From contig BSYQ01000008.1 in NCBI GenBank assembly GCA_030272585.1, positions 4,402,001 through 4,466,000 of the forward strand: a stretch of DNA of 64,000 nucleotides, given 5' to 3'. Below the pieces are notes generated by a model. That model did no database searches. It saw only the letters and a program-made list of their open reading frames with translations, and was not told the DNA's origin. The stretch comes from Bryopsis sp. KO-2023. Taxonomy: Eukaryota; Chlorophyta; Ulvophyceae; Bryopsidales; Bryopsidaceae. This document shows, in pieces, positions 1 through 40,889 of the stretch; the stretch's first letter is position 1, and each line of letters starts with the position of its first letter. Both the position numbers and the translations under genes were made by a program.

Positions 1-205
1 TGTTCTGGATACGTGCAACCCGTGTGGCGACTGACTATTCTGGTTTCGTCCCATCATCTCCATCTATCTATATATATGCCTACATACGCCTCATCATCGT
101 TAACCAACGAACCTGAACATCCTCCCAAAGTCTGTAGTTCCCGTACACACGTCCGTCCGCACGTCTATGCTTGGCGAGTTTGTGATGTTTCGATGTTCTC
201 ATGTT

Positions 206-278
206 CCGTCAGTCCGTTTAGGTGCCGCCTCAGCAAGCCCCCGTTATCGCTAGAAGACATCATTCAACGGACTGACGG
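206..278. repeat. 13-bp perfect inverted repeat
   Basis: The arm CCGTCAGTCCGTT at 206-218 is exactly inverted as AACGGACTGACGG at 266-278, with a 47-base loop. The same GTCCGTCCGTC-type words and the string CCGTTTAGGTGC recur near 375, so this stretch also carries a degenerate direct duplication. No gene is visible in 1-480. Confidence 0.6.
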
Positions 279-494
279 ACGGACGGGCATGGAAACTGGC
301 ACCAACGCCGGTCGCACGCCAAGGTCCTAGACATGGGAGTTTCGATCCCCGTGGATACGTCCGTCCGTCACTCCGTTTAGGTGCAACCAAGGCGCCCGTT
401 GTTCGCCAGAAAAGATTTGCCTCATTACATAGACTCATTCTAGACCTAAATTAGTTCCTATCCCATCCCGTGCGAAAACTTGTTGATATCGCCG

Positions 495-1010
495 AGGACA
501 CCCACGTCCCCGTTCACCCGTGTGTACGCGTGCCCGCCCTCCACCACCCGTACCCGTACCCGTCCCAAACGTGTCCACTCCCTCACTAAACTCGTTGGAA
601 ACTCCAGGGAGACTCTCCTCCCCGTTCCCCCGTGTGTACGCGTGCCCGCCCTCCACCACCCGTACCCGTACCCTTCCCAAACGTGTCCACTCCCTCACTA
701 AACTCGTTGGAAAGTCCAGGGAGACTCTCCTCCCCGTCCACCCGTCTGTACGCGTGCCCCCCTCCTCCACCACCCGTACCCCAGACCTCTCCACTGCCTC
801 CGTGCGAAAACTTGTTGATATCGCCGAGGACACCCACGTCCCCGTTCACCCGTCTGCCCGCCCTCCACCACCCGTACCCATACCCTTCCCAAACGTGTCC
901 ACTCCCTCACTAAACTCGTTGAAAACTCCAGGGAGACTCTCCTCCCCGTTCACCCGTCTGTACGCGTGCCCGCCCTCCACCACCCGTACCCGTGTGCGAA
1001 CGTGTTCACT
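495..1010. repeat. 112-bp tandem repeat array, about 4.5 copies
   Basis: A C-rich unit of about 112 bases recurs from roughly 511, 624, 737, 843 and 949. Each copy contains the words CCCGTGTGTACGCGTGCCC, CCACCACCCGTACCC and CTCACTAAACTCGTTG. The third and fourth copies are joined by a second module (TGCGAAAACTTGTTGATATC), also present once at 470-490, giving a higher-order arrangement. The long Pro/Arg/Thr-rich reading frames on both strands are by-products of the repeat and are not proposed as genes. The array ends about 80 bases before the TATA box of the gene at 1141. Confidence 0.85.
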
Positions 1011-1088
1011 GGATATCCGTCAAAACTCTGTGATGTCGTCATGGCAGGTCGGCGGCTATGTATACGTATACGCGGTACAAACCGCGAG

Positions 1089-1096
1089 TATATAAT
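1089..1096 (+). promoter_or_regulatory. TATA box of the 1141 gene
   Basis: TATATAAT lies 45 bases before the ATG at 1141. Just upstream are the palindrome GTATACGTATAC and a short CGCGGT/ACCGCG hairpin. The spacing leaves a leader of only about 15-25 bases, typical of a compact promoter. Confidence 0.6.
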
Positions 1097-1140
1097 GTGC
1101 GTCTATCACGGCCAGAAAGAAGAACCTATTTTTCTTTTCT

Positions 1141-3824
1141 ATGGACTCTCAAGCTCCCGGGACTAAAGCGCCCTTCATGGTCGAAAACCCTGTGTTTGAA
1201 GGCTTGGACGAAGACCTGGACGAAGGCCTCCCAGACGAACCAGGGTTATCCGTGCATGTCTCCCATGAAGCACCCGACCAGGACGGACAAGTACCGGACG
1301 AGGAGGTTGTTGTCGAGGAGGAAGAGAGGCAGCCTTCCGACAACGTTTTGAGTATGCCGGCTGAGGAGAGGGACGCACTACTGAAGACTATTTTCCCTGA
1401 GTGCCTTGCAAGCCGCTTAAACCATGACGACGTCATGGGGACCACGGGGGATGTTTTTGGTTTTTCGAATCGTATTCCTTCGTGGAAGCGACTTTCGGAG
1501 AATTTCAATCTCCGACAGACTCTCGTTATGCGGTTTTTATGCGGAGACTCGGAGGGTCTAGGTGAAGTCGATGCACGCGATGTTCTGGGACCGGTCCTTG
1601 GTGGGTTTCTTGTCCACGTTGCTGAGGATGTTGGATCAAACTGGCCGGCGATGGCGGGAAGTTTCTTCTCCATATCGTCTTTCGCATTAGGGCCTAACTT
1701 GACCGTCGTCCCATCACGTTCCGGTCCTCTGTCCACGTTTGAACTACCATCCTTGTGGTGGTCGTGGACCTTAGCTCCCTCTGGCAGCAATAAGTCGGGG
1801 GTGCACAAATTCTTCTCTCCTGTCTTGAGGATGCTAGAGGCATGGATGAATTCTGCCGCGTACGGGAAGGCATCAGGGTACCGTGTCGTTAGAGACGAGG
1901 AAACTACGGGGAAGAAGGCGAGAGTGGATGTGGCTAACGATGCCCGTGAACGCTTCAAGTCCTCCATGAGGATCAGGTGAGTCTCTATTTTGTTTTCGTG
2001 TGGAAATGCTGTCCGTATTCGTGTACACTTGTATTTTTGCGTTTCGTCTGTTTCGTGGACTTTCGTATCCGTTGTACACTAATTATATCCGTTTCGTTCA
2101 GGTGCCTGTCTTCGCATACTACTTGGGAGTCCCTTGGGGAAGAGCTGATCTGTTCGTTCGAACATTCGGTTGTGGACTACAAGGATGAGATGTTCCACCG
2201 CCTGGAACTCATGCAGCGGGGGACAGAGGTTAGCGGACTCCTTCAGTTGCGTGAGGGTGGGGGACTGGACCGGGGGACCGTCACAAATGGTTTATGGCGG
2301 GGTCTCGACTCGTCGTATTTCTGTCTCGTGAGTTTCTGCCAGCCCGAGAAGGCGATGGCCTTTTTGCGTGGGGAACTGGATAGCGGGCTCGGCAACAAGA
2401 TTTCGGTGACGTGTATGGCTAGAACCAATATATCTGTCAGGTCTCTTGTCGATAGGGCGGCGGCGGCCGTAGTGGATGACGACTCCGACAAAAGTCGGTC
2501 ATATTATTTGGTCGGGAACGGAGAAGACAAGAATGATTCCGTCAACAAGATCGAAGAAACGTACGCGTCCGCATGCGAGTGGAGCGAATTTTTGAAGTCT
2601 GCTGACTGCGCGACCCATTCCGTTTACGCCAACAAAGAAGGAGGAGGAAAGCGGGAAGTCGTCCACGCCCACACTCTTGGAGTTGTGGTGAAGGATGATA
2701 AAAGGGACGGGTGGGAAAAAAGGGATCCGGGAAACGGGAAGCCATCTCTGACCGCCTCCCAACGGAGGGTACTTCGGATCTTTGCACAGATGTGGGGTTA
2801 TACTCATACCCGTGGGAGCGTTGAAAGCATGAACGTACACCCAAAGCGTTTGTGCCTGTCCCCTGAGGCCTTTCGTTTGTACTGCAAGAGTTTCGACTGG
2901 ATTCTTCATGAGGTGGCCGTCGGAATGAACTCTGGGCACGCAACCGAAGTCGGCGAGTTGAGTAAAGGCCAGGGGGCAATTCTTCAACTATCGCTTTTGA
3001 TACACTGCATGGAGCACTGTATATCGAAACCGTGTGACGATACCCCACCCGCAATCGTCTCCGAGGAAACTGTTCGAAAAGCCATATCATTCTGGCTCTT
3101 TGGGTTGCTCCAAAAACACTTGCTGTTTGGGAACCGAACCCTTCTGGCAAAATTCGGCAAGCATTTGTTTCGGGATGGAGGTGGATCAAGGGGGACGGCG
3201 ACGGCTTCGGGGACGGGGATTACAGGACTTTCGGTGCCTGTTTCGTCTCCAAACGAGGTGATGAAAGATCTCATTCTTCCAAACCATCTGGATGGCGTGT
3301 TCGATGCGTGCAAGTTTGCACAGAAATCGCGATTTGTCCGCGATAATTCAGTCCGTTTCAGGCAATCGACTACGGAAATGACCGTTCATTTTGGTACGTT
3401 GACGATTGGGGTCTTCATCGAGAGCGTGAAGAAACTTTTCAAGGCCACGACCAACGGTCGTCGTCTGTTTATGATGAAGGACATCCCAGTTCTTCCATTA
3501 AATTCCAAGTTCAAGATCGGGACGAAGTCGATTATAGTCTCTGATAGAAAGCCTGGCCAGTTTAATGTGTCGGACATCGTTTTTTTGTTGATCGTTTGCT
3601 CTGTCGGGCACGTCGGAATTCCGCGCTTGGGGGACCTTAGGGGTTGCGGTGCTGGCAAATTTACCTGGGAGAGTTTGAGGGTCGAAGACCAGTCTGATGA
3701 ATTTTATAATAAGTTACGTATTAACTTGGGAATTACCCCGGGGGAATGGTTGGACGATGAAGGGTTTGCCGACGCATTCAGGGGGGAAGATAGAGTTGAT
3801 TTGGGTGCAATAGGTAATTTGTAA
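1141..3824 (+). CDS. DUF3987-like P-loop ATPase (two exons)
   Basis: Exon 1 is 1141-1976, the intron is 1977-2101 (GTGAGT...TTCAG), and exon 2 is 2102-3824. Joining restores one frame of 852 residues, with AG|G making an Arg codon. The N-terminus (about residues 15-70) is acidic. I read PSGSNKS at about 213-219 as a degenerate Walker A, after a Trp-rich strand (LWWSW), and VVDYKDE at about 302-308 as Walker B. Further matches to the DUF3987 pattern are a Gly-rich LQLREGG turn, a FCQPEK strand, and a helical C-terminal part beginning LSPEAFRLYCKSFDW and running to an ISFWLFGLLQKH helix. That layout is known from primase/helicase-like ATPases of phages and eukaryotic mobile elements. The assignment rests on remembered pattern, not a search. 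The Walker A lacks the usual Gly before Lys (Asn instead). The gene lies between tandem arrays and has its own TATA box, which suggests a mobile-element or virus-derived gene. It could instead be an unrelated lineage-specific protein. Confidence 0.62.
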
Positions 3825-3980
3825 TCGTGCGGTCTGGGGTGGCAGGCGAGTGAGTCGTGGGTTTCAGTTCGTGAGGGGTGCTGCAGGATGGCGTTTCGAA
3901 TACCCAGGCTGGGGTATATTATGGGGACTGAGTTCGCTGTTGTTTTGTAACGGTTTCTGTTTAATTCGAAGTTTCGAAGA

Positions 3981-4843
3981 GGTTCGGTTTTGACACACAG
4001 TTACAATGAAAGTGCCGCTCTTCTGCCGCTGAGTTTAATTTATGGAGATGCATTAAATTGCTTTATAACGGAAAACCAATCGCGCTTCACTGGTGGTCGT
4101 TGCCTCTTTGTGTGCCGCTGTCTGTGCCGCCAAAAAGAGGCGGCGGCACGGTGAGGTTCGGTTTTGACACTCAGTTGCATTGAAAGTGCCGCTGTCTGTG
4201 CCTCTTTCTGTGCCGCCAAAAAGAGGCAGCGGCACGGTGAGGTTCGGTTTTGACACACAGTTACAATGAAAGTGCCGCTCTTTTGCCGCTGAGTTTAATT
4301 TATGGAGATGAATTAAAAACGGAAAACCAATCGCGCTTCACTGGTGGTCGTTGCCTCTTTGTGTGCCGCTGCCTGTGCCTCTTTCTGTGCCGCCAAAAAG
4401 AGGCGGCGCCACGGTGAGGTTCGGTTTTGACACACAGTTCCAATGAAAGTGCCGCTCTTTTGCCGCTGAGTTTAATTTATGGAGATGAATTAAATTGTTT
4501 TATAACGGAAAACCAATCGCGCTTCACTGGTGGTCGTTTCCTCTTTGTGTGCCGCTGCCTGTGCCTCTTTCTGTGCCGCCAAAAAGAGGCGGCGGCACGG
4601 TGAGGTTTGGTTTTGACACACAGTTGCAATGAAAGTGCCGCTCTTTTGCCGCTGAGTTTAATTTATGGAGATGCATGAAATTGTTTTATAACGGAAAACC
4701 AATCGCGCTTCACTGGTGGTCGTTGCCTCTTTGTGTGCCGCTGCCTGTGCCTCTTTCTGTGCCGCCAACAAGAGGCGGTGCCACGGTGAGGTTCGGTTTT
4801 GACACACAGTTCCAATGAAAGTGCCGCTCTTTTGCCGCTAATT
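3981..4843. repeat. 186-bp tandem repeat array, about five copies
   Basis: Units start with GGTTCGGTTTTGACACACAG at about 3981, 4155, 4241 (short unit), 4418, 4604 and 4789. Each full unit carries an A+T-rich middle (GAGTTTAATTTATGGAGATG, TTTTATAACGGAAAACCAATC) and a hairpin-forming end in which GTGCCGCC pairs with GGCGGCAC across an A-rich loop. The array ends about 195 bases before the ATG of the next gene. A single inverted copy lies on the far side of that gene. Confidence 0.92.
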
Positions 4844-5037
4844 GTCATTTCACTTGATGAAGGCGACGAGCGAAAAGACTCTGAGGAGCTGTGTCAGCAT
4901 TGAAACAACGCAGTTTTGGCCTCAAAACGCACGCTCTTTTTTTCGCTCTCCGCTTTTTTTTGAACGGTTGCTGCCTGTCGCTGGTTGGGTGTGTGTGTGT
5001 GGTTGTGAGAGAGAGAGTAAGAGCGTGCGTGTGCGGG

Positions 5038-6102
5038 ATGGACGCATTGAAAAAAGAAAATGAACGATTGAGGGCAGAGGTGGAGAAATGGAAAAGAAGG
5101 GCAACAAAGGAGAGGAGGAATTTGAAGAGGATCCAAAAGTCGGTGATGGAGACGCTGGACGAGGAGGATTGGACGGAAGAGGAGGAAGAGGAACGTTGGG
5201 AAGGGGGGGCGGATATGGATGAATTCCAGGAGGGTGGGGACACAGAGGGTCCGAGCAGACGTCAGAAACGGACACGGGGATCCGAGACGGAGACGGGGGC
5301 GGAGGAGGAGGCGGAGGCGGAGCTACCGATAAGGCGGAGGGGATTGACAGGGAAGGAGCCGTCAAGGAGACGGAAAAGAGCCCGCAAGGACACGCGGCCG
5401 CACCAGCCGAGGCGCACCCCGGACACCCCATGTATCACCCCGGCTGCTTGCATCTTTTGCAAGAAGGGTGAATCGGACAGGCCGGCGGGGGGCAGCTTCA
5501 ACGGCATGGCCGTGAAGTTCTGCGACGCTCACATCGTTTGTGAGAATGCCCTCTGCCGGGACAAGTTCTGGCTGACCCAGACACTCGAGGTCACCCCAAC
5601 GAAGACTGTGCGCCGCGCGTTCTTCCCCGAGGCCATGGCAGCACCGAGAATCGGAGTGCACGAGCCGCCGTTCTGCCTCCTTTGCGAGAGGTCTCCGATC
5701 CCACAAACCCGCCGCCTTGCAAACCAGATCTCAAAGATCTACAGGGAGAAGGGGAGAGCGATGGAGATCAGGAAGGTGGGGATGGTGGTGGGAGGGGATC
5801 CACTTGTGGATCCGAAAACTCTACCGGGTGTTTTTTTCACCGTTGGGCAGGGGAATGAGCCAGAGGGGGGTCAGCCAGAGGGGGGTCAGCCAGAGGGGGG
5901 TCAGCCGGGGGAGGGGGGGGAGGCACAGGGAGGTCAGCCGGGGGAGGGGGGTCAGCCAGAGGGAGGTCAGCCGGGGGAGGGGGGGGAGGCACAGGGAGGT
6001 CAGCCGGGGGAGGGGGGTCAGCCAGAGGGAGGTCAGCCGGGGGAGGGGGGGGAGGCACAGGGAGGTCAGCCGGGGGAGGGGGGGGAGGCAGGCGGGAGTT
6101 AG
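5038..6102 (+). CDS. coiled-coil, Cys-rich protein with Gly-Gln-Pro repeat tail
   Basis: A single open frame of 354 residues. The ATG at 5038 is the first ATG in frame; the frame is open upstream to about 4891 without another ATG. Residues 1-40 form a basic coiled coil beginning MDALKKENERLRAEVEKW. An acidic stretch and a run of RRRKRAR-type basic clusters (likely nuclear localisation) follow to about 130. Residues 135-225 hold CxxC (CIFC), then FCDAHIVC and ENALC, then CLLC, a plausible zinc-binding module distantly reminiscent of LIM or treble-clef fingers. The last ~80 residues repeat EGGQPGEGGEAQGGQP. I do not recognise the family. A DNA-binding role is inference only. The gene sits between the 186-bp array and its inverted copy. 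Confidence 0.5.
   Translation: MDALKKENERLRAEVEKWKRRATKERRNLKRIQKSVMETLDEEDWTEEEEEERWEGGADMDEFQEGGDTEGPSRRQKRTRGSETETGAEEEAEAELPIRRRGLTGKEPSRRRKRARKDTRPHQPRRTPDTPCITPAACIFCKKGESDRPAGGSFNGMAVKFCDAHIVCENALCRDKFWLTQTLEVTPTKTVRRAFFPEAMAAPRIGVHEPPFCLLCERSPIPQTRRLANQISKIYREKGRAMEIRKVGMVVGGDPLVDPKTLPGVFFTVGQGNEPEGGQPEGGQPEGGQPGEGGEAQGGQPGEGGQPEGGQPGEGGEAQGGQPGEGGQPEGGQPGEGGEAQGGQPGEGGEAGGS
5857..6100. repeat. G-rich minisatellite encoding the protein tail
   Basis: Units of GGTCAGCCAGAGGG and GGTCAGCCGGGGGAGGGG alternate, with a longer period of about 66 bases. The period is a multiple of three, so copy-number change keeps the frame. The opposite strand is also open (Pro-rich) but is a shadow. Confidence 0.85.
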
Positions 6103-6324
6103 CTAAGGGGGGGGGGACTTCATAATTGAATTTTATGATTAATGACTGACTGAATGAAAAATTGAAATATTATTTTTGTAACCAAGGTTGGTTCGTTTGT
6201 TCTGTTGGCTTGTTAATTCCGCTGATCAGTTTTATTTCATTTTTATCATAAATCAAACGGCAACCCAGTGTCGCGTCGACACGAACACGCAATGGTAGGG
6301 GCTTCCAACAGCCAACCACCTGAA

Positions 6325-6525
6325 CACAAACTTCGTGCCGCCGCCTCTTTTTGGCGGCACAGAAAGAGGCACAGACAGCGGCACATAAAGAGGCAACGAC
6401 CACCAGTGAAGCCTGATTGGTTTTCCGTTATAAAACAATTTAATGCATCTCCATAAATTAAACTCAGGGGCAAAAGAGCGGCACTTTCATTGTAACTGGG
6501 TGTTAAAACCGAATCTCACCGTGTG
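6325..6525 (-). repeat. inverted single copy of the 186-bp repeat
   Basis: Read on the minus strand this matches the array at 3981-4843: the hairpin end, the CACTGGTGGTCGTTGCCTC segment, the TAATTTATGGAGATGCATT middle and a GATTCGGTTTTAACACC edge. It is more diverged than the array copies. With the array it brackets the 5038-6102 gene in inverted orientation. Confidence 0.9.
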
Positions 6526-6629
6526 ATTGACTGACGTCGTTGCAGACACTTGGGACTCCAACAAACGAACACAATTAAATAATATAGCGCCACAGGCACG
6601 CTAAAAAGCATCTTCCAACTAGCATAACC

Positions 6630-6641
6630 ATATATATATAT
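6630..6641 (+). promoter_or_regulatory. TATA-like (AT)n element before the 6781 gene
   Basis: ATATATATATAT followed by TCCTCCAACT lies about 140 bases upstream of the ATG at 6781. The position fits a TATA box with a leader of around 110 bases. Confidence 0.4.
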
Positions 6642-6780
6642 CCTCCAACTACACCGGTTATGTCCACCTGTTATTTCGTACACGCAGTCCCCCCTCAAAC
6701 CTTGCCCTGCACAGACACGACGTCACATCCTCCGAAGACCCTGGCTGACTCAACCTATCAAAACTCCACCTATAGAAACC

Positions 6781-7107
6781 ATGGCTCCCCTGTTCTACCA
6801 ACTCTGGAAAATGGATTTGAACGGCTTCCTCGAACAACTGCGACACGAACTCGCCCGTGCGCTCGCAGCATACCGGCGATTACGGGAAGCGAGGGAGGGC
6901 TTCGAGGGTGCGGAGGCGATTGCCGCCGCCAGGCGACAATGCACGGAGTGCGATGACCGGCTTATCGGCGTGATAGGCATCGTCCTCTCGCTGTTGCCCG
7001 CAAACGCCCCCGCGAGACCCACTCTCCGACGCCTGTTCCTCCGCTACGTTCGCAGGCACTCTGTTCTCCGCAATCATGTGCCGCGGCGGTGGAATCGACG
7101 AGGCTGA
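6781..7107 (+). CDS. small basic hypothetical protein
   Basis: A 108-residue open frame. Residues 1-55 look like one long amphipathic helix rich in Leu, Arg and Ala; two Cys follow (CTEC), then a hydrophobic segment (LIGVIGIVLSLLP, about residues 61-73) and an Arg-rich C-terminus (RRLFLRYVRRH, then RRWNRRG). The hydrophobic segment could be a short membrane helix or a packing helix. The stop is followed within six bases by 25 adenines. GC-rich codons contrast with the AT-rich flanks. I do not recognise it. Confidence 0.4.
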   Translation: MAPLFYQLWKMDLNGFLEQLRHELARALAAYRRLREAREGFEGAEAIAAARRQCTECDDRLIGVIGIVLSLLPANAPARPTLRRLFLRYVRRHSVLRNHVPRRWNRRG

Positions 7108-7112
7108 ATCTG

Positions 7113-7137
7113 AAAAAAAAAAAAAAAAAAAAAAAAA
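7113..7137 (+). repeat. A25 tract directly after the small gene
   Basis: Twenty-five consecutive A residues begin six bases after the stop of the 6781 gene, like a genomically encoded poly(A) tail of a retroposed transcript. No target-site duplication was found by eye. Confidence 0.9.
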
Positions 7138-7639
7138 CATCCTTTTCTTTATCAAACTGGGGTTCAGTGCATCCTGAAGGACATTATGGATTGGTAGATC
7201 CGTTGTGGTGAACGACTTGTTCAATTGGTGTTGGAGAAATTCTAAAGCCAGAAATAATGGCAGTAGATATATTAAAACCTACGGAGAGGTGTTTGGACGG
7301 ACTGTACAATGAGGTATCTTTGGGAAGAAAGGGAGAGTGTTTCGGTGTTTTTTTCTTGCCAGAAGGGCTCATGGATCCTACGTATTTTTGGAGAACGTTA
7401 TTGTTTGGTACTGAGTTGCGATGGGAACAAAACAAACAAACACAGACACATGTAATCATTGATTGACTCATTGGTTTGGTATGCCTTCCGCTCTTAAAAA
7501 AACAAAATAAACCATAGTTCCAATTACAAACAATCAATACCAAAACAATCAATTTGTCTGTCCGTAAGGAAAAAGAAATCGCCACCAACAACACAAAAAC
7601 GTTTCGTTTCATAACCTCCTTCGTTTCGCTCGTTTCGTT

Positions 7640-9665
7640 CATTCAGTGTGGACGGAGACACGGACGGACGGGGAGGCGGGTTTCGTTTGCTGGCCTCCCT
7701 AGTCTGATCGACTTGTGATTTTCACTGGTTTCCTTCATTGAGTGTGGACGGAGACACGGACGGGCGGGGAGGCGGGTTTCGTTTGCTGGCCTCCCTCGTT
7801 TTGTTCTTTCAGTGTGGACGGAGACACGGGCGGACGGGGAGGCGGGTTTCGTTTGCTGGCCTCCCTAGTCTGATCGACTTGTGATTTTCACCTGTTTCCT
7901 TCATTGAGTGTGGACGGAGACACGGGCGGACGGGGAGGCGGGTTTTGTTTGCTGGCCTCCCTCGTTTCGTTCTTTCAGTGTGGACGGAGACACGGGCGGG
8001 CGGGGAGGCGGGTTTCGTTTGCTGGCCTCCCTCGTCTGATCGACTTGTGATTTTAACTCGTTTCGTTCATTGAGTGTGGACGGAGACACGGGCGGACGGG
8101 GAGGCGGGTTTTGTTTGCTGGCCTCCCTCGTTTCGTTCTTTCAGTGTGGACGGAGACACGGGCGGGCGGGGAGGCGGGTTTCGTTTGCTGGCCTCCCTCG
8201 TCTGATCGACTTGTGATTTTAACTCGTTTCGTTCATTGAGTGTGGACGGAGACACGGGCGGACGGGGAGGCGGGTTTTGTTTGCTGGCCTCCCTCGTTTC
8301 GTTCATCCAGTGTGGGCGGAGACACGGGCGGACGGAGAGGCGGGTTTCGTTTCCTGGCCTCCCTCGTTCCGTTCATCCAGTGTGGGCGGAGACACGGGCG
8401 GACGGAGAGGCGGGTTTCGTTTCCTGGCCTCCCTCGTTTTGTTCTTTCAGTGTGGACGGAGACACGGGCGGGCGGGGAGGCGGGTTTCGTTTGCTGGCCT
8501 CCCTAGTCTGATCGACTTGTGATTTTCACCTGTTTCCTTCATTGAGTGTGGACGGAGACACGGGCGGACGGGGAGGCGGGTTTTGTTTGCTGGCCTCCCT
8601 CGTTTCGTTCATCCAGTGTGGACGGAGACACGGGCGGACGGGGAGGCGGGTTTTGTTTGCTGGCCTCCCTCGTTTCGTTCATCCAGTGTGGGCGGAGACA
8701 CGGGCGGACGGAGAGGCGGGTTTCGTTTCCTGGCCTCCCTCGTTTCGTTCATCCAGTGTGGGCGGAGACACGGGCGGACGGAGAGGCGGGTTTCGTTTCC
8801 TGGCCTCCCTCGTTTTGTTGTTTCAGTGTGGACGGAGACACGGGCGGACGGGGAGGCGGGTTTTGTTTGCTGGCCTCCCTCGTTTCGTTCATCCAGTGTG
8901 GGCGGAGACACGGGCGGACGGAGAGGCGGGTTTCGTTTCCTGGCCTCCCTCGTTTCGTTCATCCAGTGTGGGCGGAGACACGGGCGGACGGAGAGGCGGG
9001 TTTCGTTTGCTGGCCTCCCTCGTTTTGTTCTTTCAGTGTGGACGGAGACACGGGGGGGCGGGGAGGCGGGTTTCGTTTGCTGGCCTCTCTCGTCTGATCG
9101 ACTTGTGATTTTAACTCGTTTCGTTCATTGAGTGTGGACGGAGACACGGACGGGCGGGGAGGCGGGTTTCGTTTGCTGGCCTCTCTCGTCTGATCGACTT
9201 GTGATTTTAACTCGTTTCGTTCATTGAGTGTGGACGGAGACACAGACGGGCGGGGAGGCGGGTTTCGTTTGCTGGCCTCCCTCGTCTGATCGACTTGTGA
9301 TTTTAACTCGTTTCGTTCATTGAGTGTGGACGGAGACACGGACGGGCGGGGAGGCGGGTTTCGTTTGCTGGCCTCCCTCGTCTGATCGACTTGTGATTTT
9401 AACTCGTTTCGTTCATTGAGTGTGGACGGAGACACGGACGGGCGGAGAGGCGGGTTTGGTTTGCTGGCCTCCCTCGTTTTGTTCTTTCAGTGTGGACGGA
9501 GACACGGGCGGGCGGGGAGGCGGGTTTCGTTTGCTGGCCTCCCTAGTCTGATCGACTTGTGATTTTCACCTGTTTCCTTCATTGAGTGTGGACGGAGACA
9601 CGGGCGGACGGGGAGGCGGGTTTCGTTCGCTGGCCTCCCTCGTCTGATCGACTTGTGATTTTCAC
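7640..9665. repeat. 70/96-bp minisatellite array, about 25 units
   Basis: The 70-bp unit holds CAGTGTGGACGGAGACACGG, a GGCGGGTTTCGTTTGCTGG block and CCTCCCTCGTTTCGTTC. A second unit type adds a 26-base module (CTGATCGACTTGTGATTTT) to make 96 bp. From 7640 to about 8520 the types alternate, the middle is mostly 70-mers, and 9060-9440 is a run of 96-mers. The 70-mer shifts frame each copy, so all plus frames stay open for hundreds of bases. The 96-mer gives a 32-residue period on the minus strand. I treat all of these as non-coding. Confidence 0.95.
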
Positions 9666-9739
9666 GTGAATCCCCTTCAGTCCGACTTCCGATTATTCCG
9701 TTTATTTATATTTGGTTTAGGGTCGCGTTAGCCGCCGCA

Positions 9740-9832
9740 TCGACCGCGCGACCGGCGTGCGTGTTAGACCGGCGCGACCGGCGTGCGTGTTAGACCGGCG
9801 CGGCGACCGCGACCGCGACCGGCGGACAAAGA
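9740..9832. repeat. short GC-rich repeats
   Basis: GCGACCGGCGTGCGTGTTAG occurs twice in tandem, followed by GCGACC-type triplet repeats. It marks the right edge of the repeat-rich accessory block. Confidence 0.6.
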
Positions 9833-11106
9833 GGGGGTAAACCCGCGGGGACCAGGCCCTGTTAACCCTTCCTCAACCCCCTTGTCCAGCACAAGCAATC
9901 CTTTGGTAGAAGTGTCCCTCTGACCAGGAAAATGGTGATGTTTCACTGCACGAAGAGCAATTGCTCTCTTTCTGCTGGATGTTGACCGATGCGGGCTTGC
10001 AGGATCGCGAGGCTGAGTGCAGCCTTCGAACCCATCCAAATGAAGCTGGGAGTTGCACCTGGAGGAGAGCCCTGCCCAGCTTGACGAAGACGAATGCCAT
10101 TTTTTCCACGAAAGGGTGATGGTGGAGTCGGTCGAGATCAAGCAAGCGGAGCTCAATGCAAAGGGGGCCCCACGGAAAGAGCTCAAGCCCTGGACAATGA
10201 AACACAGAACGGGACATTTGACAGCTACAATTTCCATTTCAGGAGCCAGATTTTCACCAGGAAAAAAAAATTATCAGCACAAATCACGGCCGCAAAAAAA
10301 GCCCACAGCAAGCTTTCAAAAACAAAAAAAAGAAATACTTAAATTGTAACTGATGGTCATTTTTCCCACAGAGAAGCTGTCACCTCTTCTTTTTGACTAC
10401 CTGGCACATAAACTCCAAGCCAATGTTTTGAGGATGCAGTTCAACATAGAGACAAAGAATAATAATACTCACCGTTCTGGTCGCTTGTGCAATCCCTCTG
10501 CAGCGAGATTCCTGATGAGCTCCACCGTTTGTTAATATTTTTTTTAGTCCAAATCCATGAACAAACTGCCAATATCAACTGACTGCAACAAAGGATAAAT
10601 CAATTTGCAAAAGGAGGAGAAATACCCATGTCACATCAAGTTGTAATAGCACAACATCAAATGAGTGCATCCGCGAGATGATGTTTGTTTGATGTTCTCG
10701 GCTGCTGTAGCTTGCAGAAATAAAAGAATAAACACGTTGTCTTTCTGTTGGTCATTTTCTCTGCCATGTTATTTTTGGCATCGCTTCTCCCAATATTAGG
10801 TGGTGGGAGGGAAAAAACAGATACAAACCCATCCGGGAATCGGTAGTCACATATTTCAAAACAGGAAAATCGAAAAATTCAAGCATTCTTACCTTCCATC
10901 GAGAAGTTCTTTCTCCACCAGTCCAACAGTGCCCAACACATAACTATCCAGGGCTCAAAAACACCTCGACTTTCTGGAGGATAAAAACACACACATAAAT
11001 AAATAAACAGACACAGGCAATCGTTATCAATCACTTTTCGAGTACAGTAGAGAAAATCCTATACCTGGTATCAGATAAACGAAAACTTTTTTGCACATGG
11101 CACCTT
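9833..11106. other. stretch without a recognised gene
   Basis: Open frames occur (for example 10053-10349 plus, 98 codons) but lack a convincing ATG start, homology or splice-supported extension. An acceptor-like TTTCCATTTCAG lies near 10240, so a small exon cannot be excluded. The rest is AT-rich intergenic sequence. Confidence 0.4.
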
Positions 11107-11424
11107 TCAGTTCTCCACATAGAAGCCACCGTCTTGGAATACGGGGCCACCTCTCGCTAGGTTTGCTTGATGGTGATGTTGGGAAGGGCACAAGTCGAAG
11201 TCATCACCACGTCCTTCACCGGCCAGCAGGCTTCGAAAACCAAAAAATTGAGAATTTTTCGGGGCGAATGGGTGAATTGCCCCGCCGCCGACAAGCCCCC
11301 CCCCCCCCCCACCCCGCATTCGCGTCGTACTGGGATGTGACCGGGTCGCAGGAGTGTCTGACACGATCGACACTTGAACCAAAAGAAGAAAGGCAATGAT
11401 CCAACCACTGCTCAGGACACGCAT
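11107..11424 (-). CDS. possible small secreted glycine-rich peptide
   Basis: A 105-residue frame from the ATG at 11424. It opens with a textbook signal peptide (MRVLSSGWIIAFLLLVQVS, cleavage likely near residues 20-22), then a Ser/Thr-rich stretch, a Gly run (GGGGGGLVGGG) encoded by a C-tract on the plus strand, and a polar C-terminus ending GGFYVEN. The frame is also open 15 codons upstream of this ATG, but the ATG at 11424 places the hydrophobic core at the usual distance. No family is recognised. Either a real secreted peptide or a chance frame. Confidence 0.33.
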   Translation of the reverse strand: MRVLSSGWIIAFLLLVQVSIVSDTPATRSHPSTTRMRGGGGGGLVGGGAIHPFAPKNSQFFGFRSLLAGEGRGDDFDLCPSQHHHQANLARGGPVFQDGGFYVEN

Positions 11425-12338
11425 TTTTATGGGGAATGGAATCTTTTCACACAAAAATGGCAAAAACAATTTCTGACAAGCCAGGAAAAATAGAATACAA
11501 CGAGAGATGGTTTCGCAGGATTAGTAATGCACTGAATGGGGGACCCCTCGTGGTGGATGTTCAGTGACGGAGGGAGGGATCACCTGTCTGGAGGTTTCCT
11601 CTCAGGGTTGGGGGGAAAGTAAAACGGAAAAGGAAGGCTTTGAAGTGGATGAGATGCGATCACGACTTACTGTGAATGCGGAAATGTGGAAAACTAGTCA
11701 TTGGGGGTAATGATGTGTGAGGCCCAACGTTCTGGTTCCCGCAACAAGCACTTCAATTAATATATCAAGGATTACATGTTGAACTAGTACTTAAACCGGG
11801 GTATTTATGCAAATGTCATTAGGAAACTTCAAAAAATCCATACAACCGAGAGAAAATTTGTGGAATCAAAGGAAACACAAGACAGGGGGCCGGAAAAATC
11901 GGTCGTCGTTCTGTTTCTGTCGGAGGCTGTGTTGATCGCAGCACTTTTTCCCTTACTTTTTTAGTATTTTTCAGGTTCCAAAGCCCTTCAAAGCATGCCA
12001 GAAAATTGCAACACCTTGGACTAAAGAAAGTAAAGAACCAGCAAAACTAGGATACATGGTTTTTGCACATGTATGTGAATCTTCTTCAATTTCGATTTCT
12101 GCAAAATCTTGTTTTCAATTTGATCTGGTTGATCTAGAACAGTGGGCATTCTCTGGTGGTATTCTGGTGTTTGAGGTTTACGTTTCCTGGAGGCCAAAAA
12201 AAACAACAACAAGAAACAAAAAAAGGTTCGATATATATATATATATATCAATGCAGGATGTTGGTGCCCCTATCGATAGGCCTCTCAATATCGTGAGGCT
12301 ATTCATCCACCTGGAATACCTCTCGAGTCGAGGAGAGA
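11425..12338. other. intergenic, no gene seen
   Basis: AT-rich sequence without a supported gene. A (TA)n microsatellite lies at about 12231-12249, shortly before the DIRS-type element. Confidence 0.5.
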
Positions 12339-12630: not shown

Positions 12631-13326
12631 ATGGATCGTCTTTTACCATTGTATACCACAGCAGCTCGAAATTACGGAGTTTCTATCCCACAAGATCTGG
12701 CCCTGTATCGACAATTGTCGGATACAACACTTTTGCCCGCGGCGAATAACCCGGTCGAGGCCCCCTCGACAGGAGTGACCTTGGGGCTTTGGTTTGATTT
12801 TGGGCGAACGGCGGACGGTCTGGAATTGCAATCGACTGTGGGGAAGCGTTCAGGCTTCTGGCAGGAGATTGCGAATACAGCTCCGGTATTGTATTCGCTG
12901 TTTGTGACCACAGCTAATTTGGTTGGTTTCTTGGCGCATCCTGGAGTACCAGAGGCTTTGCGTGAACATATCCATCCGATTGTGTCAGCGCAAGTGCGCA
13001 CTTTGGATTTAGCTGTTGCCCAGTGGCAGGTGTTACAGACTCGGGGTTCTCAAGATCCCGACGTTCCTGGTGCAGCAGCGGGTCTGCAAAACCAGATTCG
13101 ATTACAAGGAGCTCAGTTCCGCGGATATTCTGCCCCAGTGGCCCACGAATACTTTGGCTCGTTTCGAGAGCAGTTGCAGCGGGCGCAGGTTAAGCACGCT
13201 ACTACGCCCTCTCGGGGTGATCAGAAAAAAGGTCGTTCTCGTAAAGGAGCGCAGCAAGGACAGGGCGAGAATTCTGGGGCTCAGCAGCAGCCGCCGCCGC
13301 AGAATCAGAATCACCAAAAGAAGTGA
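12631..13326 (+). CDS. gag-like ORF of the DIRS-like element
   Basis: An intact 231-residue frame from the ATG at 12631, 110 bases after the A1 repeat. The first 180 residues are a mixed helical region without zinc knuckles. The C-terminus is basic and Gln/Pro-rich (KKGRSRKGAQQGQ, then QQPPPQ), as expected for a nucleic-acid-binding Gag. It stops immediately before the pol frame, so translation coupling or frameshifting is likely in the intact element. Confidence 0.75.
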   Translation: MDRLLPLYTTAARNYGVSIPQDLALYRQLSDTTLLPAANNPVEAPSTGVTLGLWFDFGRTADGLELQSTVGKRSGFWQEIANTAPVLYSLFVTTANLVGFLAHPGVPEALREHIHPIVSAQVRTLDLAVAQWQVLQTRGSQDPDVPGAAAGLQNQIRLQGAQFRGYSAPVAHEYFGSFREQLQRAQVKHATTPSRGDQKKGRSRKGAQQGQGENSGAQQQPPPQNQNHQKK

Positions 13327-14312
13327 ATGGGGTATAGGCCGCCATCGGGATGGCCAGTTCGCGATCCGACGACTTTTCTCTTCAATCAGCCGAGGAAGCG
13401 GTTGACGATTTGGAGACGTATGGGAGCTTCCCGGCGCACAATGAAATGGTTGCATCAGGGGGTGGATTGGAATTGGATCTCAGGACCACCACCCCCCTTC
13501 CACGAGGGGAATTCAGTGATGGAGGGGGCAACTGGTCAAGCATGGGACAAGATTCTGCAAGAGTATTTGTGTTACAGCCGCAGGCGTGACAATTTGGATC
13601 TCGGGGTGTTGCGTCCGGCCCGTTCGAATCGCTGGGTGTCCAAGGCTTTCTTGATCAAGAAACGCGATTCTCCCGACTACAGGCTCATAATGGATTTACG
13701 ACCTATCAACCAGTGGATTCAGGTTCCAAAAGTCCGGTTCGAGACTCTGCAGTCGGCGGTCGGCCATTTTCCAGAAGCCGCCCACATGATCCAATGGGAC
13801 TTGAAACATGCGTACTTTCATGTGCCCATCCACCCCAAGCTGAGGAAATATCTGACGATTATGGTAAATGGTCGTCTATTCGAATGATGTGCATTACCTT
13901 TTGGTTTGTGTATTTCGCCCTTTGTCTGGACAAAGGTGATGAAGGATGTGTCGTCCTTTTTGCGTTTTCCGTGACAAGTGGCTTGTCCGCCAGGGGGCAT
14001 TTTGAAGAAAATTTGGAAAGCCGATATCCCCGTCACACTTTTAGTGTATTTAGACGATTTCTTAGCACTATACAGGGGAAAAAAGGTTTTGGCTCGATGG
14101 GGCAGGTGGATTCAGAAATTTTTCCAGGCGTTAGGCCTGTTAGTCCACCCTGTCAAGAGCGATTTTTCGCCCTCCTGGAGGAGGATTCATTTGGGATTAG
14201 AAATAGATACCAATCAATGTTTACTACGAGTACCGGTTACAAGGTTGTGTCGGATCCAGGGGTTGGCACGGTTGTTGCTCGATCGGGGGCGACGACATCG
14301 TTGGAAGCTCCC

Positions 14313-14383
14313 TGATACGGGATAAAGCGGCACAGCCCGCAAAGGGGGCGGGCCGGTCCACCAACGTCCCGTATCGTGTATCA
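14313..14383 (+). repeat. 5' LTR of the TRIM-like element
   Basis: 71 bp, TGATACGGGA...GTGTATCA. It also contains an internal 9-bp inverted repeat (GATACGGGA/TCCCGTATC) that could form a hairpin. Confidence 0.92.
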
Positions 14384-14385
14384 TT

Positions 14386-14398
14386 TGGTTTCGGAGCC
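14386..14398 (+). promoter_or_regulatory. primer-binding site of the TRIM-like element
   Basis: TGGTTTCGGAGCC lies two bases after the 5' LTR and resembles the complement of a Met-tRNA 3' end. Downstream GAGTTCGAGTCC resembles a tRNA B box but is not part of a foldable tRNA. Confidence 0.6.
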
Positions 14399-14779
14399 GA
14401 ACTTGCGATCCGAAGGTCACGAGTTCGAGTCCTAGCGAGGCCATGGAAGTTGAGAGTGAGTTGGCGCCTCTGACCCGAGAGTGGTAGTAACGAGAGGTGA
14501 AAGAGCATGAGGATCACTGCGAAGGAGGGGAGGGGGCTGAGATCATCACAGTGATCGCCGCCGCAGAGCAAGGCAAAAGACCATAAGCTCAAGAGACTAG
14601 ACGGATCAAAGGGATAAGAACAAAGGATCAGAGGATCACAAGAAAGATCCTGGAGAACCCCCAAATAGACCCGCGAGAGAACGGTAACCCGGTAATCGCA
14701 GAGAGGGTCAAGGAGAATGGAGTAACGGGCACGAGGAGAAGGTGGTCGAGGGCGACCACTGGCCCGGGGGGGGACGAGA

Positions 14780-14850
14780 TGATACGGGATAAAGCGGCAC
14801 AGCCCGCAAAGGGGGCGGGCCGGTCCACCAACGTCCCGTATCGTGTATCA
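14780..14850 (+). repeat. 3' LTR of the TRIM-like element
   Basis: Identical by eye to the 5' copy over 71 bp. Directly followed by the CTCCC target duplication and the continuing RNase H frame. Confidence 0.92.
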
Positions 14851-15887
14851 CTCCCAGTCCGACTGGTGGCTTCATTCTGTGGCCTTTGTCAGAGCACCAG
14901 CCCAGCTTTAAGCGCCGCCAGGTTCTATCTGAGTCACTTATACGCTCAGATTGGTCAGAAGAAAACCTGGAAATCATGGGTCCCCATATCTGCAGCCGCG
15001 AGGAGGGAGTTGCAATGGTGGCGAAACGTTCCCGCGGCCTGGAATGGAACTCGGTGGAAACCCGGGAAGGTCCATTGGACGCTGGAAACCGACGCCTCCC
15101 TCACCGGCTGGGGGGCCTCATTGTTGAAGGGCTTGGTAGAGACCGACGAGCGGGAGCGACGAGCACAGGGGGCAGTGTGTCACGGCTTTTTTCAGGCCGA
15201 ACATCAGCAGCACTCGATCAATTGGAAGGAGCTGACGGCAGTGTCGCGCGCCTTGGAGCATTGGGAACCATGCCTCGGCAAATGTCTGGTATCCGTGGTT
15301 ACGGACTCCAGGGTAACCTATTGGGCGCTCAAGAAACTACGTGTGTACGAACCGACTCTGGTTCCAGTATTACAGCAGATCGTCGAGTTTTTGACGCGGA
15401 CGGGGGCGCGCATGTGCCCGCGTTGGGTGGCCTCCCAGGACAACTTTCAGGCAGATGCATTGAGCCGCCTCCAGTCTCATGGCTGGAGACTCAATCCGGC
15501 TATTTTTCGTCAGTTGGAGGTTCACTTTGGCCCGGTTCGGATAGACCGGTTCGCCACGCTCAGAGACCGGCAAGTGGAGGAATACAACTCACGAACTTGG
15601 GAACGCGAGAGCTCAGGCATAGATGCTCTCTCCCAGAGGGATTGGGACAGAGGCGTTTCGTTCGTTCACCCACCTTGGGGCTTGTTGGAGAAAACTATCG
15701 ACTTCCTCAGCAACCTACCGCGAGTTCGTGCCCTGTTGGTACTGCCGTGGTGGCCAGGAGCAGTGTGGTGTCGCCAAGTGATGAGCCTAGCCCAAGGAGG
15801 GATTTGGCTCCCGGACCGAGCAGGGACATTTTTACCTCATCCGGGGACGTGCAACCAGACCCCGTACCCCCCTTGGCGTTCGGTGGT

Positions 15888-17087
15888 GTGGATTATCAAC
15901 AAACCGAAGAAGGTTTGGTTCTGGAAGGACAAGGTAATTCCCTTCGTCAAATTGTCCTCGCAGTGTTAAACGAGGAGTTTGGACAACAACAGTATGATTG
16001 GGAGCGTTTGCTAGAAGTGGATATACAATGGCCGTCCGAGATTGTGGCTTTACGGCTTCATGTGGTGTCCGATTTGATTCGCAAGGTTATCGCATCGAAT
16101 GCGCCGTCTGGACGGGACACTATTTTTGCAAAGTTTAGAAAATTTTGGCACTTTATGCAGTCTACCAAAGAGAAACCCCCGTTTCCTGTATTAACCCCGG
16201 AGATTTATGAGTACTTGACTTTTTTGAAAGAGGAAGGGAGAGTGAGTCCTGGGTCCGCGCGACAGTATCTTACGGCGATCCAATCCATGCATTCGTGGAC
16301 TATGTTGGGGACCTTGAAGCTTTCGGACGAGGTTACCAAAAGGTTTATCGCAGGATGGGGCAAGGATTTGGCGGAACGATCACCGGAGAGGATTCCAGTG
16401 CAGCATTCGCCAGTGCCCTCCAAGGCGGTTCATTTTTGGTTATCCCTGGTTCGAGAACAGGACTTGACCCTTCCCCAAGTCAGAGATCTTTTATTGATGG
16501 TATTCGATTTCCTTTTCTTTGCTCGGGCGGATACGGCGTTCGCGGTTCGCCTGCAGGACCTGGAACTGGATGCGGGTGAGTGCACGATACATTTCATTGA
16601 GCGGCGCTACAAATCGCATAATGCTTTTGAGTTGCGACGGTCGAGGCTTTTTCCTTGTTCGGGGTGCCCAGAGGTTTTCGGGGCGTTTGAAAAGTTTTTG
16701 AAAGCGCGGAAAGAAAACTGGGGACAGGATCAAGAAATGGCGACGTCTCCTCTCGCTTCATTATGGCGGTTGCCTGGAGATCCAGTTACATTGGATGCGA
16801 AATTTGTGGCGAAGTGCTTCTCCAGAGTCATTTGGAGTTTCGGAGAAGCAAGTGGAGTGCCTAAAGGGTGTGTGTATGGCCATCACTCTCTTCGTCGGGG
16901 CGGCGCATCCGCAATGTATGCGATAGGGATTAGTGAAGGGGACATTAAATTTGGGGGGGGGGGGGTCTGCATCGTCGACGGCCGTTTGGTCGTATATCGA
17001 CAAAGCTCAGGTCGCGACGGAGTCCGACTTGTTATTTTTTACATGGAAAAAGCGGAGCTGAATTCTTTTTTATTAAGTATTTATTAG
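15888..17087 (+). pseudogene. frameshifted tyrosine recombinase of the DIRS-like element
   Basis: The frame overlaps the end of the RNase H frame and encodes a ~360-residue phage-integrase-type recombinase: an N-terminal SAM-like DNA-binding part (WHFMQSTKEKPP, SPGSARQYLTAIQSM), the catalytic Arg region (FLFFARADTAF), and the box II motif HHSLRRGGAS. A run of 13 G (16953-16965) then shifts the frame. The next frame over holds AVWSYID, which supplies the nucleophilic Tyr, and ends at a TGA at 17059-17061. So the catalytic Tyr is out of frame in this copy, or the G-run length is wrong in the assembly. Confidence 0.9.
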
Positions 17088-17894: not shown

Positions 17895-20800
17895 TCACTC
17901 TGCCAGGGAACAGAGCATGCAGACACCCCTCATTGTCCAGTGATACTCTGGCAAGTCGGTTGGCAGACGAATCATCATCAAGAAGTTTGTGGAATGGCCA
18001 GTAGTCGCCAGCACACCCCGTCTATCGCCTGTCCTGTAAACTGGGCAGTTGTAGTGCTGGTATTGGGCGAAATCTTCCACAGGCATTGGCCTGAGCCAGA
18101 TAACAGGTCCAGGCTCGAACAAAACTTTCGACTCGCTCTCCCTCAGCTGTTTTTTGGAGTCATCCCAACCGCAGCCTTCGACGAACAAGCCATGCACGTA
18201 CACGCCATCTTCTGGCGGCGTCGTATACTGACTCTCGTCCACGCCCAACATTTCGAAGTCGAACCCTACTTTATCGATGGAAAATTGGTGCTTCCTGGCA
18301 TAGTTTTGAAGAGCGGCCGTGGTAAAAGCTGGGGTGAAGAAGAATCCTGATATCCAAAATGTGGAGGGCTGGCCGTTTTCGAACCAGCCATGGAGCATAC
18401 CCAGTCGATCCATCAACTCATTCACGTAGGATGAGACCGGTTTCAGAGATGGAAACGACTTAGATTTCCACAGATCGGGGATTTTGCCGATGGCCAGGGA
18501 GCGAAACACCTTGTCCAGCTCTCCAGACATCACTTGAAGCCCTTGAATAGCTTTTTGCAAGTTCACAAGACTGTTTCGGATGATGGTTATGAGTAGATTG
18601 TAACGCAGCATTTCTTGGCACAGAACCTGTGTGGATCAACAGCAGTGAAATCAACGTCCTTCATTCACATGCACTAGCAAAGGGGTAAGAATCTCAACTT
18701 TCTCCCGGTCCCCAACAATAGCTCAGTTTGCAGACAATGATCGCTAATTCTTCTCACCTGATTCATGGATTCCTCATACTTCACAGGGAACTTGGCCTGC
18801 GCTTTCTCTATGTCAAAGTTCGCAGGCAGTCTGTTTAATATGTCTTCCACCATTCGACCCACTAGCTCCTCATCATTTCCTCCCCCTCCCCCGCCGCCAG
18901 CTCCACCAGTCATCAAGAGGGTGCTCATCATCAAATCCGTCTCTTGTAGATCTTTTGTGATGTTCGCATTCTCGTGAAGCCCGAAAACTTCAGGCATTGG
19001 GTTACTGGGAAGTGCGTCGATATACCTGTATACGAGAAGCAGATAACCCGTCTCACATAAACCAAACCCTTTCCTTAAAAATACTTCTTACTTCAACGTT
19101 GAAGTCGTTAACGAGAGTCGTTCGAAAAAATGGGTACAACGCCTGGCTGATCGAAAGGCTTTGCTGCATACTTGATATAGGACTCGTGTGCCCCCTCTTC
19201 AGGGACGTAGTAAGTGCCCGATGCGCTCAATTTGAACGGGTTGTCCGTCATGATGTCTCCACGGTACACACGCTCCAGCACCGTCTGCAAAAGCCTTCTG
19301 TCTTTGTCGTCCGTCACTCGTCCTCCATAATTGCACTCGCCGACGGCATACTTCAGCGCGTCATAAGGAATGTACTCGTTGTCATCCAAATACATTCTCA
19401 ACTGTCTGGCCGAAATGCGCAGGTCTCCATCGTCGAAACTGTAAGGTATATTCCAACCGATGGGCCCAAATTTGCGACGCTCTTGAACAAAGCCGTGAAT
19501 AAAGCACAATCCGAAAAGAAGACGCTTGAAAGCTCCAGGTTTCGTACATCCTGGAAGGGAAAAAAAAAATACTTAGGCTCAAATCAAATTCCAGCGAACC
19601 ACCTGTTCATTAATCGTGTCTTCTGGTTATCCAAATAAACAGCAATCACCTTCGAAGAAATTCTCGTCGTTGAGGGGGTCCAGTTTGTAGGAGCGCCTCA
19701 AATTTGCTTTCAGCCCTGCAGGTGGCTCATTGGTCATTTTGACCGAGTTCTGCAGAATTGTCACAGGAAACGCTGGACTCGGCATGCTGGTCATCCACAG
19801 ACGAAAATCTGGGTCGGTGTTTTCGGGCAGTATTCCTTCACAGATCTTTTCCAGAGAAGGCATCCAGGATGCAGCCAAGTGACAATTCTGCAGGACCACC
19901 CAAGTTCCTTCTTTTCTGGCCGTCTTTATGAGAACTTCAGCTTTCGGCCCCTACAGTTGAACCCACCATCAAAACCTTGTCAGCTACATGCTCTAGTAAA
20001 CCTATGAAGTTGCGACCATCCTTTTTTACAGAATTTTTAAAGATTCCATAAGAAGCAACATGCCAGAACTCTACCTGTCCTTGTCCCATCGATATCACTG
20101 AGATTTTGGAGCCGCCATAGCCCATATCGTCCGCAAACCTTAGCAAGGCTGCCGTGGGATCTGATCCAGGCGACAATACGAACAATAAGGGTGCTGTGAC
20201 ACTTGATTCCTTGTAACAAGAGCCCAAGTCGATGGTGGGAGGCTCCACGAACTTTTGCCCCAGTGTTGCAGAGACAAAATCGCGGACTCCAGGCACCACT
20301 TTGTCGGGCCTCAGCATTCGTAGCACCAAGAGTTTCTCGAAGCTAGCCAAAGACGAGAGTCCTTCAAATGACACATCCTGCGGCTCGACGGCGTCGAATA
20401 TTTTTTTCCACGCATCTGGATCTTTTGAGATGGCTTCAGGGAGGTTTTTGAATTTGTCATCGACGTTTGCGACACGGCATATTTCTCCCCACGCTTTTTG
20501 TGAAATCCAGCTGCTGGCGGGATTGGGTACATCTTTTTCTGGTACCCCAACTCCACCAGACAAAAGAAACGAATACATTGGTGGAAGTAACTCCCCGCGC
20601 ATCGACAAGAGCCTGTCATAGACGCAACAAGAAGTTGCTATAGCCATCCACTACAGTCGATGGGCGGCGCAGCGTGTATTGATACTGTGCTGGGGGGGTT
20701 CCTTACCGAGTGTTTAGCAGGAATGCGAAAAGGACTTTGTCTTTTTCAAACAACGAGAGGCATATATTGGTGTAAAGAGAGTAGGTGAAGTGGTCGTTGA

Positions 20801-40803: not shown

Positions 40804-40809
40804 AAAAAA
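40804..40809 (-). terminator. Pol III T6 terminator of U6
   Basis: Six T residues on the minus strand directly after the U6 3' end. Confidence 0.85.
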
Positions 40810-40857
40810 CTATTGGACCTTTTCTCGAACCGAGCGTGTCATCCTTGCGCAGGGGCC

Positions 40858-40889
<32 letters not shown>

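What the first reader, a model, noticed from the sequence alone, without database searches (positions are those of the whole stretch)
1..9830. Possible undescribed large mobile element or virus-derived island carrying a DUF3987-like ATPase
Seen: a ~9.7-kb block with three distinct tandem arrays (112, 186, 70/96 bp), one inverted array copy, and three compact genes, two preceded by TATA or (AT)n elements, quite unlike the intron-dense host genes to the right. The largest gene has a degenerate Walker A (GSNKS), a DE Walker B and a helical C-terminal layout matching DUF3987, a primase/helicase-like family known from phages and mobile elements. Inference: the genes belong to one accessory unit whose repeats act in replication, packaging or transposition.
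Basis: partly seen in the sequence, partly recalled or inferred. Interest (0 to 1): 0.72.

Follow-up and report, generated by a model that had tools for sequence, protein, structure and literature searches.

The report
Algal jumping gene missing its transposase
The block is a damaged copy of a large DNA transposon in what is probably a green-lineage alga: it kept both ends and a helicase-like gene that selection has preserved, but lost the transposase gene that six sister copies still carry, whole or broken.

Summary
The block is one complete insertion of 9,978 bp, from 104 bp left of the window to base 9874, flanked by an 8-bp target-site duplication (AACCCCCT; right copy at 9875-9882). The 91-Mb genome holds six more large copies (16.1-20.1 kb) and two short ones (~570 bp) with the same ends. 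In 8 of the 9 paired elements I read the flanks: the duplication is exactly 8 bp each time.

The six larger copies carry about 5 kb that the window copy lacks. It encodes a KDZ-type transposase (CxC5, chromodomain and KDZ matches, each below Pfam's cut-off). The window copy most likely lost it by recombination between two 186-bp arrays; the switch lies near 4270-4350.

The 852-aa gene is a DUF3987 member (46.8 bits, cut-off 27). Two versions of it, on otherwise almost identical elements, show dN/dS 0.14-0.23, so it has been kept functional. I found no virus gene.

Giant KDZ elements with extra genes are known from algae. A DUF3987 gene and a chromodomain in the transposase appear unreported in the papers I could search. 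Verdict: new variant of a known kind.

The parts
1..506 (+). Left subterminal region of the element; the true left end, with the TIR CAAGAGGGGTTAACGGG and a GTTAAC-containing hairpin, lies 104 bp outside the window (C8:4401897; L009:9397)
507..993 (+). Left array, 112-bp unit, about 5 units here against 12-15 unit matches in the six sister copies (partial, diverged matches in C5 and C11)
1141..1976 (+). Gene 1 exon 1: DUF3987 protein, N-terminal part with degenerate Walker A APSGSNKS
2102..3824 (+). Gene 1 exon 2: rest of the DUF3987 protein (852 aa in all)
3832..3974 (+). R1, half of a dispersed genomic repeat, ending in CGAAGTTT, which looks like the 8-bp duplication of the 186-bp unit's own insertion
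3975..4850 (+). 186-bp array; fusion of the left and right arrays of the full-length element, switch at about 4270-4350; marks where about 5 kb with the KDZ transposase and ORF4 is missing
5038..6102 (+). Gene 2: coiled-coil-like N-terminus (weak matches only), Cys-rich middle, Gly/Glu/Gln repeat tail; no family over a cut-off
6263..6335 (-). R2, other half of the dispersed repeat, inverted
6334..6523 (-). Inverted copy of the 186-bp unit
6781..7107 (+). Gene 3: 108-aa protein, (AT)n box at 6631-6641; no Pfam or NCBIfam match, two weak PHROGs matches
7629..9665 (+). Right subterminal array, 70/96-bp composite unit, about 25 units
9666..9874 (+). Right end with imperfect TIR (14 of 21 positions match the left end)
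9875..9882 (.). Right copy of the 8-bp target-site duplication AACCCCCT (left copy is outside the window, just before C8:4401897)

Best explanation
The block is an internally deleted, non-autonomous copy of a giant KDZ-type (Kyakuja-Dileera-Zisupton) DNA transposon. Full copies (16-20 kb) run: left end, 112-bp array, DUF3987 gene, 186-bp array, KDZ transposase, ORF4 on the opposite strand, 186-bp array, gene 2, gene 3, 70/96-bp array, right end. The element duplicates 8 bp of target on insertion (shown from the flanks); cut-and-paste movement is inferred from the superfamily. The window copy lost the transposase block by recombination between the two 186-bp arrays (the array switch is shown; loss rather than gain is inferred). 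It could then move only with transposase supplied in trans (inferred). The DUF3987 protein is more likely a helicase-like or regulatory ATPase partner of the transposase than passive cargo (inferred; I put that part alone at about 0.5). The confidence given is for the identity and the deletion.
For: Seven large copies and two short ones share both ends. Exact 8-bp flush duplications in 8 of 8 elements whose flanks were read, of 9 with both ends (the C7 short element was not read). All seven large copies have the same order of parts, and six of seven have the middle block. The transposase matches KDZ (E 7e-4), CxC5 (2e-3) and Chromo (1e-3) in one predicted protein. 8-bp duplications are reported for Zisupton and for a Dileera, 7 bp without TIRs for two Kyakuja families (PMC12730594, passages). 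The array switch is visible at 4270-4350. DUF3987 scores 46.8 bits against a cut-off of 27. Gene 1 versions, window against C5: exon 2 dS 0.38, dN 0.05; exon 1 dS 0.56, dN 0.13 (Fisher on the difference counts p 6e-37 and 5e-16). The stretch from GEEL to CMART, 97 residues, differs at one site. Gene 1 reads without stops in 6 of 7 large copies (window frame; others).
Against: All three transposase-domain matches are below Pfam's curated cut-offs (19.8/26.6, 18.5/26.9, 19.3/25.1 bits), and the KDZ match covers only profile positions 113-209 of 217. A search of the genome with the KDZ model found nothing at E <= 0.001; its controls rang nowhere, so it is uninformative. 8-bp duplications are also made by other superfamilies (hAT, P; recalled). 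The Walker A motif of gene 1 is degenerate, so ATP hydrolysis is doubtful. In the C10 copy gene 1 itself is disturbed (altered first residues, frame change near the start of exon 2). The dN/dS rests on one pair of versions. The first splice junction of the transposase was chosen by me. No second KDZ family with DUF3987 was found in this genome. No expression data.
Confidence: 0.88

Rival explanations
1. The window copy is ancestral: an element without transposase that later gained the KDZ block by insertion between 186-bp repeats.
For: The block is flanked by direct arrays on both sides, so gain and loss leave similar junctions.
Against: Six of seven large copies carry the block, including both versions of gene 1. 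The window's array switches from left-array-like to right-array-like sequence inside one array, as deletion predicts.
Confidence: 0.06
2. The element is a virus-derived island or Polinton-like element that uses a DUF3987 replicative helicase.
For: DUF3987 is predicted to be a helicase of mobile-element replication in prokaryotes (PMC5862659, passages). Multi-gene layout. Very weak gene 2 matches to a replication initiation protein (E 0.086) and a capsid model (E 0.42).
Against: No capsid, polymerase, protease, integrase or packaging family in the ORFs scanned with Pfam. Two scans of viral contigs found no match to their patterns (close relatives only). 8-bp duplication and short TIRs.
Confidence: 0.03
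3. A sub-claim, not exclusive with the best explanation: the DUF3987 gene is passenger cargo (selected for a host or anti-silencing function) and takes no part in transposition.
For: Giant KDZ elements carry extra genes of unknown function in Ectocarpus, and several giant families carry no transposase (PMC12477816, passages). Fungal KDZ elements carry TET/JBP (PMC12730594, abstract and passages). The 569-bp element has the ends without gene 1, so gene 1 is not needed in cis.
Against: Present in all seven large copies (disturbed in C10), strongly constrained, with a nearly invariant 97-residue core.
Confidence: 0.4
4. The element belongs to another superfamily with 8-bp duplications, such as hAT.
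For: 8-bp duplications; left end begins CAAGAG, like some hAT ends (recalled).
Against: No hAT domain in the transposase up to E 0.1; KDZ and CxC5, two models tied to one superfamily, match in the same protein. 0 of 8 duplications fit nTnnnnAn, the pattern I recall for hAT.
Confidence: 0.05

Closest known systems
Giant KDZ elements of Ectocarpus and Chlamydomonas (PMC12477816, passages read)
   Same: KDZ superfamily, over 10 kb, extra genes, nested insertions, transposase often broken so that copies must be moved in trans
   Different: The passages read name no DUF3987 and no KDZ transposase with a chromodomain; 'primase' and 'ATPase' do not occur in the main text, and the chromodomains discussed in the passages belong to Gypsy elements
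Zisupton / Dileera families (PMC12730594, abstract and passages read)
   Same: KDZ transposase, 8-bp target duplications; TIRs are stated there for Zisupton
   Different: The fungal ones discussed there carry TET/JBP dioxygenases, and 'DUF3987' and 'chromodomain' do not occur in the main text; here DUF3987 and three genes without family, with large tandem arrays towards both ends
DUF3987 (PF13148) proteins of bacterial mobile elements (PMC5862659, passages read)
   Same: DUF3987 domain above the curated cut-off
   Different: There fused to archaeo-eukaryotic primase domains; here no primase domain was found by Pfam, the gene has an intron and the Walker A is degenerate

Membership tests
KDZ DNA transposons | KDZ transposase domain | tested here: inconclusive
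   E 7.1e-4, 19.8 bits, cut-off 26.6; covers profile 113-209 of 217; encoded in six sister copies, absent from the window copy
KDZ DNA transposons | CxC cysteine cluster associated with KDZ transposases | tested here: inconclusive
   CxC5 E 2.3e-3, 18.5 bits, cut-off 26.9
KDZ DNA transposons | 8-bp target-site duplications (Zisupton, Dileera) | tested here: met
   8 of 8 elements read, of 9 with both ends
KDZ DNA transposons | Terminal inverted repeats (Zisupton) | tested here: met
   imperfect, 14 of 21 positions
KDZ DNA transposons | RNase H-like DDE fold | not testable with these tools
DUF3987 (PF13148) | score over the curated cut-off | tested here: met
   46.8 bits against 27, two stretches, E 3.1e-12
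DUF3987 (PF13148) | canonical P-loop GxxxxGK[ST] of an active ATPase (consensus recalled; not part of the Pfam definition) | tested here: not met
   APSGSNKS in both versions; member by profile, activity doubtful
Polinton / endogenous virus | polymerase B, capsid, integrase or packaging genes | tested here: not met
   none in eight ORFs and two spliced proteins scanned with Pfam; PHROGs and NCBIfam scans of window ORFs gave nothing at E < 0.08
hAT | hAT transposase domain | tested here: not met
   no match in the transposase protein up to E 0.1

The most novel reading that the evidence does not exclude
The DUF3987 protein is a dedicated ATPase partner of a KDZ transposase, working like a eukaryotic TnsC or a replication helicase and reading the left array. 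Two diverged gene-array cassettes (left array plus gene 1) sit on otherwise nearly identical elements, which would make specificity of the pair testable.
Probability: 0.2. Interest if true: 0.65.

Novelty: new variant of a known kind. Interest (0 to 1): 0.42.

Why it matters
It shows a giant KDZ transposon that carries, beside its transposase, a gene of a family that the papers found here link to bacterial and phage replication, and it gives full-length, deleted and miniature copies of one recent family side by side. If the DUF3987 protein is needed for movement, it would be an accessory ATPase for a eukaryotic DNA transposon, which could help explain how such large elements move. The exchanged left cassette is a natural experiment for that.

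Tried and rejected
Virus or Polinton origin: rejected on gene content; two viral-contig scans found no match (these reach close relatives only). Model searches of the own genome: the KDZ model found nothing (controls silent, uninformative); the DUF3987 model found only the C5 and C11 copies, while the protein search found all seven large copies plus two fragments on C2. Independent KDZ-DUF3987 families: one C2 fragment and the C8:5510xxx remnant that I fetched are decayed pieces (the other C2 fragment was not fetched), so no second family supports the pairing. The transposase protein search found only the six sister copies. RNA in the dispersed R1/R2 repeat: no Rfam match up to E 0.1; no tRNA in window 1-12000. 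A shared short motif in both end arrays: GACGGACG-type words occur towards both ends and hardly in the other 54 kb, but I did no significance test and claim nothing. Structure of gene 1: PDB sequence search with exon 2 empty up to E 1, structure prediction unavailable.
Full report
OBSERVATION. Gene 1 has one GT-AG intron (1977-2101) and encodes 852 aa.

COPIES AND ENDS. The window lies in a 91-Mb, 28-contig eukaryotic genome. A search with 1-9830 found near-identical DNA on C4, C5, C9, C10, C11 and C12 (its list was cut). Patterns for the two ends, up to 3 mismatches, gave 11 left ends and 10 right ends, with 0 matches for the control patterns. Nine pair up: C4 16,126 bp, C5 16,801, C8 (window) 9,978, C9 17,389, C10 16,667, C11 17,094, C12 20,078, and two short elements (C4:5959214-5959782, 569 bp; C7:3240860-3241427, 568 bp). 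Two left ends and one right end stand alone. I read the flanks of eight of the nine pairs (not C7): in 8 of 8 the longest flush direct repeat is exactly 8 bp, with different words, AGGTTCTT, CCAACATA, GATAATTC, TCTAATTG, GGTCCCTT, AATGGCAC, AACCCCCT, GTAAATCT. The element therefore begins 104 bp before the window and ends at 9874.

ANATOMY. Feature mapping shows the same order in all seven large copies: left end, 112-bp array, gene 1, R1, 186-bp array, transposase, ORF4 (minus strand), 186-bp array, gene 2, inverted R2 and 186-bp unit, gene 3, 70/96-bp array, right end. Only the window copy lacks the block from transposase to ORF4. 100-base tiles across the window's 186-bp array match the C4 left array at 99-100 bases for tile starts 3830-4290 and mostly fit the C4 right array better from 4350 on (three tiles at 4470-4510 fit the left one better by 1-2 bases), so one crossover near 4270-4350 is the simplest account. 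C12 has extra DNA in the last transposase exon and in the right 186-bp array; C10 has a shifted transposase frame, about 0.5 kb extra before gene 1, altered first residues of gene 1 and a frame change near the start of its exon 2. The last transposase exon is open in C4, C9, C5 and C11, and the first two exons as I drew them have no stop in 6 of 6 copies.

THE TRANSPOSASE. A protein spliced from the C9 copy (765 aa; first junction chosen by me) matches, in order, CxC5, Chromo and KDZ. Each is below its curated cut-off, so membership rests on the agreement of two superfamily-specific models, the 8-bp duplications reported for Zisupton and a Dileera (PMC12730594, passages; two Kyakuja families there make 7 bp and lack TIRs) and the TIRs. 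The chromodomain-like stretch lies between an IDGN motif and the YDNGC...EERF part, which I take, from memory of the family, for the catalytic residues.

THE DUF3987 GENE. Spliced gene 1 matches DUF3987 at 46.8 bits (cut-off 27). Its Walker A is degenerate (APSGSNKS) in both versions. The C5 and C11 copies carry another version of the left module. Of 34 tiles of 100 bp from 1 to 3400, C5 keeps 61-94 identical bases in 30, 99 in one (401-500) and 0-30 in three, while the left 104 bp keep 102, and from 3401 to 9800 C5 keeps 93-100 in every tile; C11 is alike (90-100 there, except 61 in one tile at the end of a fetched piece) (the last tile runs past the element). Between the versions gene 1 has dS 0.38-0.56 and dN/dS 0.14-0.23 (window against C5). 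Transposase exons 2-3 differ at dS 0.01-0.02 (C9 against C5; dN/dS 0.29-0.54 on few changes), ORF4 at 0.02 (C10 against C5), and genes 2 and 3 not at all in the parts compared (gene 2 in a shifted frame, but with zero differences). So the left module was probably exchanged between lineages, and both versions were kept functional by selection. This argues against dead cargo, but does not by itself show a role in transposition; the 569-bp element shows that gene 1 is not needed in cis.

RECENCY. Most tiles are 99-100% identical between the window and C4, C9, C12 and C10, and duplications are intact, so the family moved recently.

HOST. One rhodopsin exon of the genome matches channelrhodopsins best (entry 6eig, E 5e-35; that these are Chlamydomonas proteins is recalled), so the host is probably a green-lineage alga; I did not identify the species. 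A dynein heavy-chain exon lies to the right.

WHAT IS KNOWN. Giant KDZ elements with extra, mostly unknown genes and broken transposases are described in Ectocarpus, and that paper cites transposition of a 31.7-kb KDZ element in Chlamydomonas (PMC12477816, passages). DUF3987 occurs in 10 papers of the library (listing; passages of PMC5862659 only), whose titles concern bacteria, archaea or phages. Searches joining Zisupton, KDZ, chromodomain, helicase or accessory genes (listings, some capped) showed no title on such a pairing. The original Zisupton and KDZ papers and the Chlamydomonas paper are not held, so novelty of the DUF3987 pairing is provisional.

VERDICT. A non-autonomous deletion copy of a giant KDZ-type transposon family with a selected DUF3987 gene: a new variant of a known kind.

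Noticed in passing
window 12631-17087: A DIRS-like retroelement: reverse transcriptase pieces (E 4e-4 each), RNase H (E 3e-7) and a phage-integrase SAM-like domain (E 3e-4, below cut-off) in plus-strand frames.
   Followed up: partly
window 3832-3974 and 6263-6335: The 186-bp unit sits in a dispersed repeat (23 places outside the element listed for the first half) that is contiguous elsewhere, with an 8-bp overlap CGAAGTTT, so the unit looks like a small transposon that inserted with its own 8-bp duplication and later became an array.
   Followed up: partly
L023, L025 (C5 and C11 copies): Left array plus gene 1 form a diverged cassette on an otherwise nearly identical element.
   Followed up: partly
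L037:1501-2069: A 569-bp miniature element with the same ends and 8-bp duplication GTAAATCT; it keeps about 82 bp of the left end, the right end and one inverted 96-bp-like unit.
   Followed up: partly
window 40807-40909, minus: U6 spliceosomal RNA gene.
   Followed up: no
L047: A channelrhodopsin-like gene, used as a clue to the host.
   Followed up: partly
window 17898-18611, minus: Exon of a dynein heavy-chain C-terminal domain, a host gene (E 3e-92).
   Followed up: no
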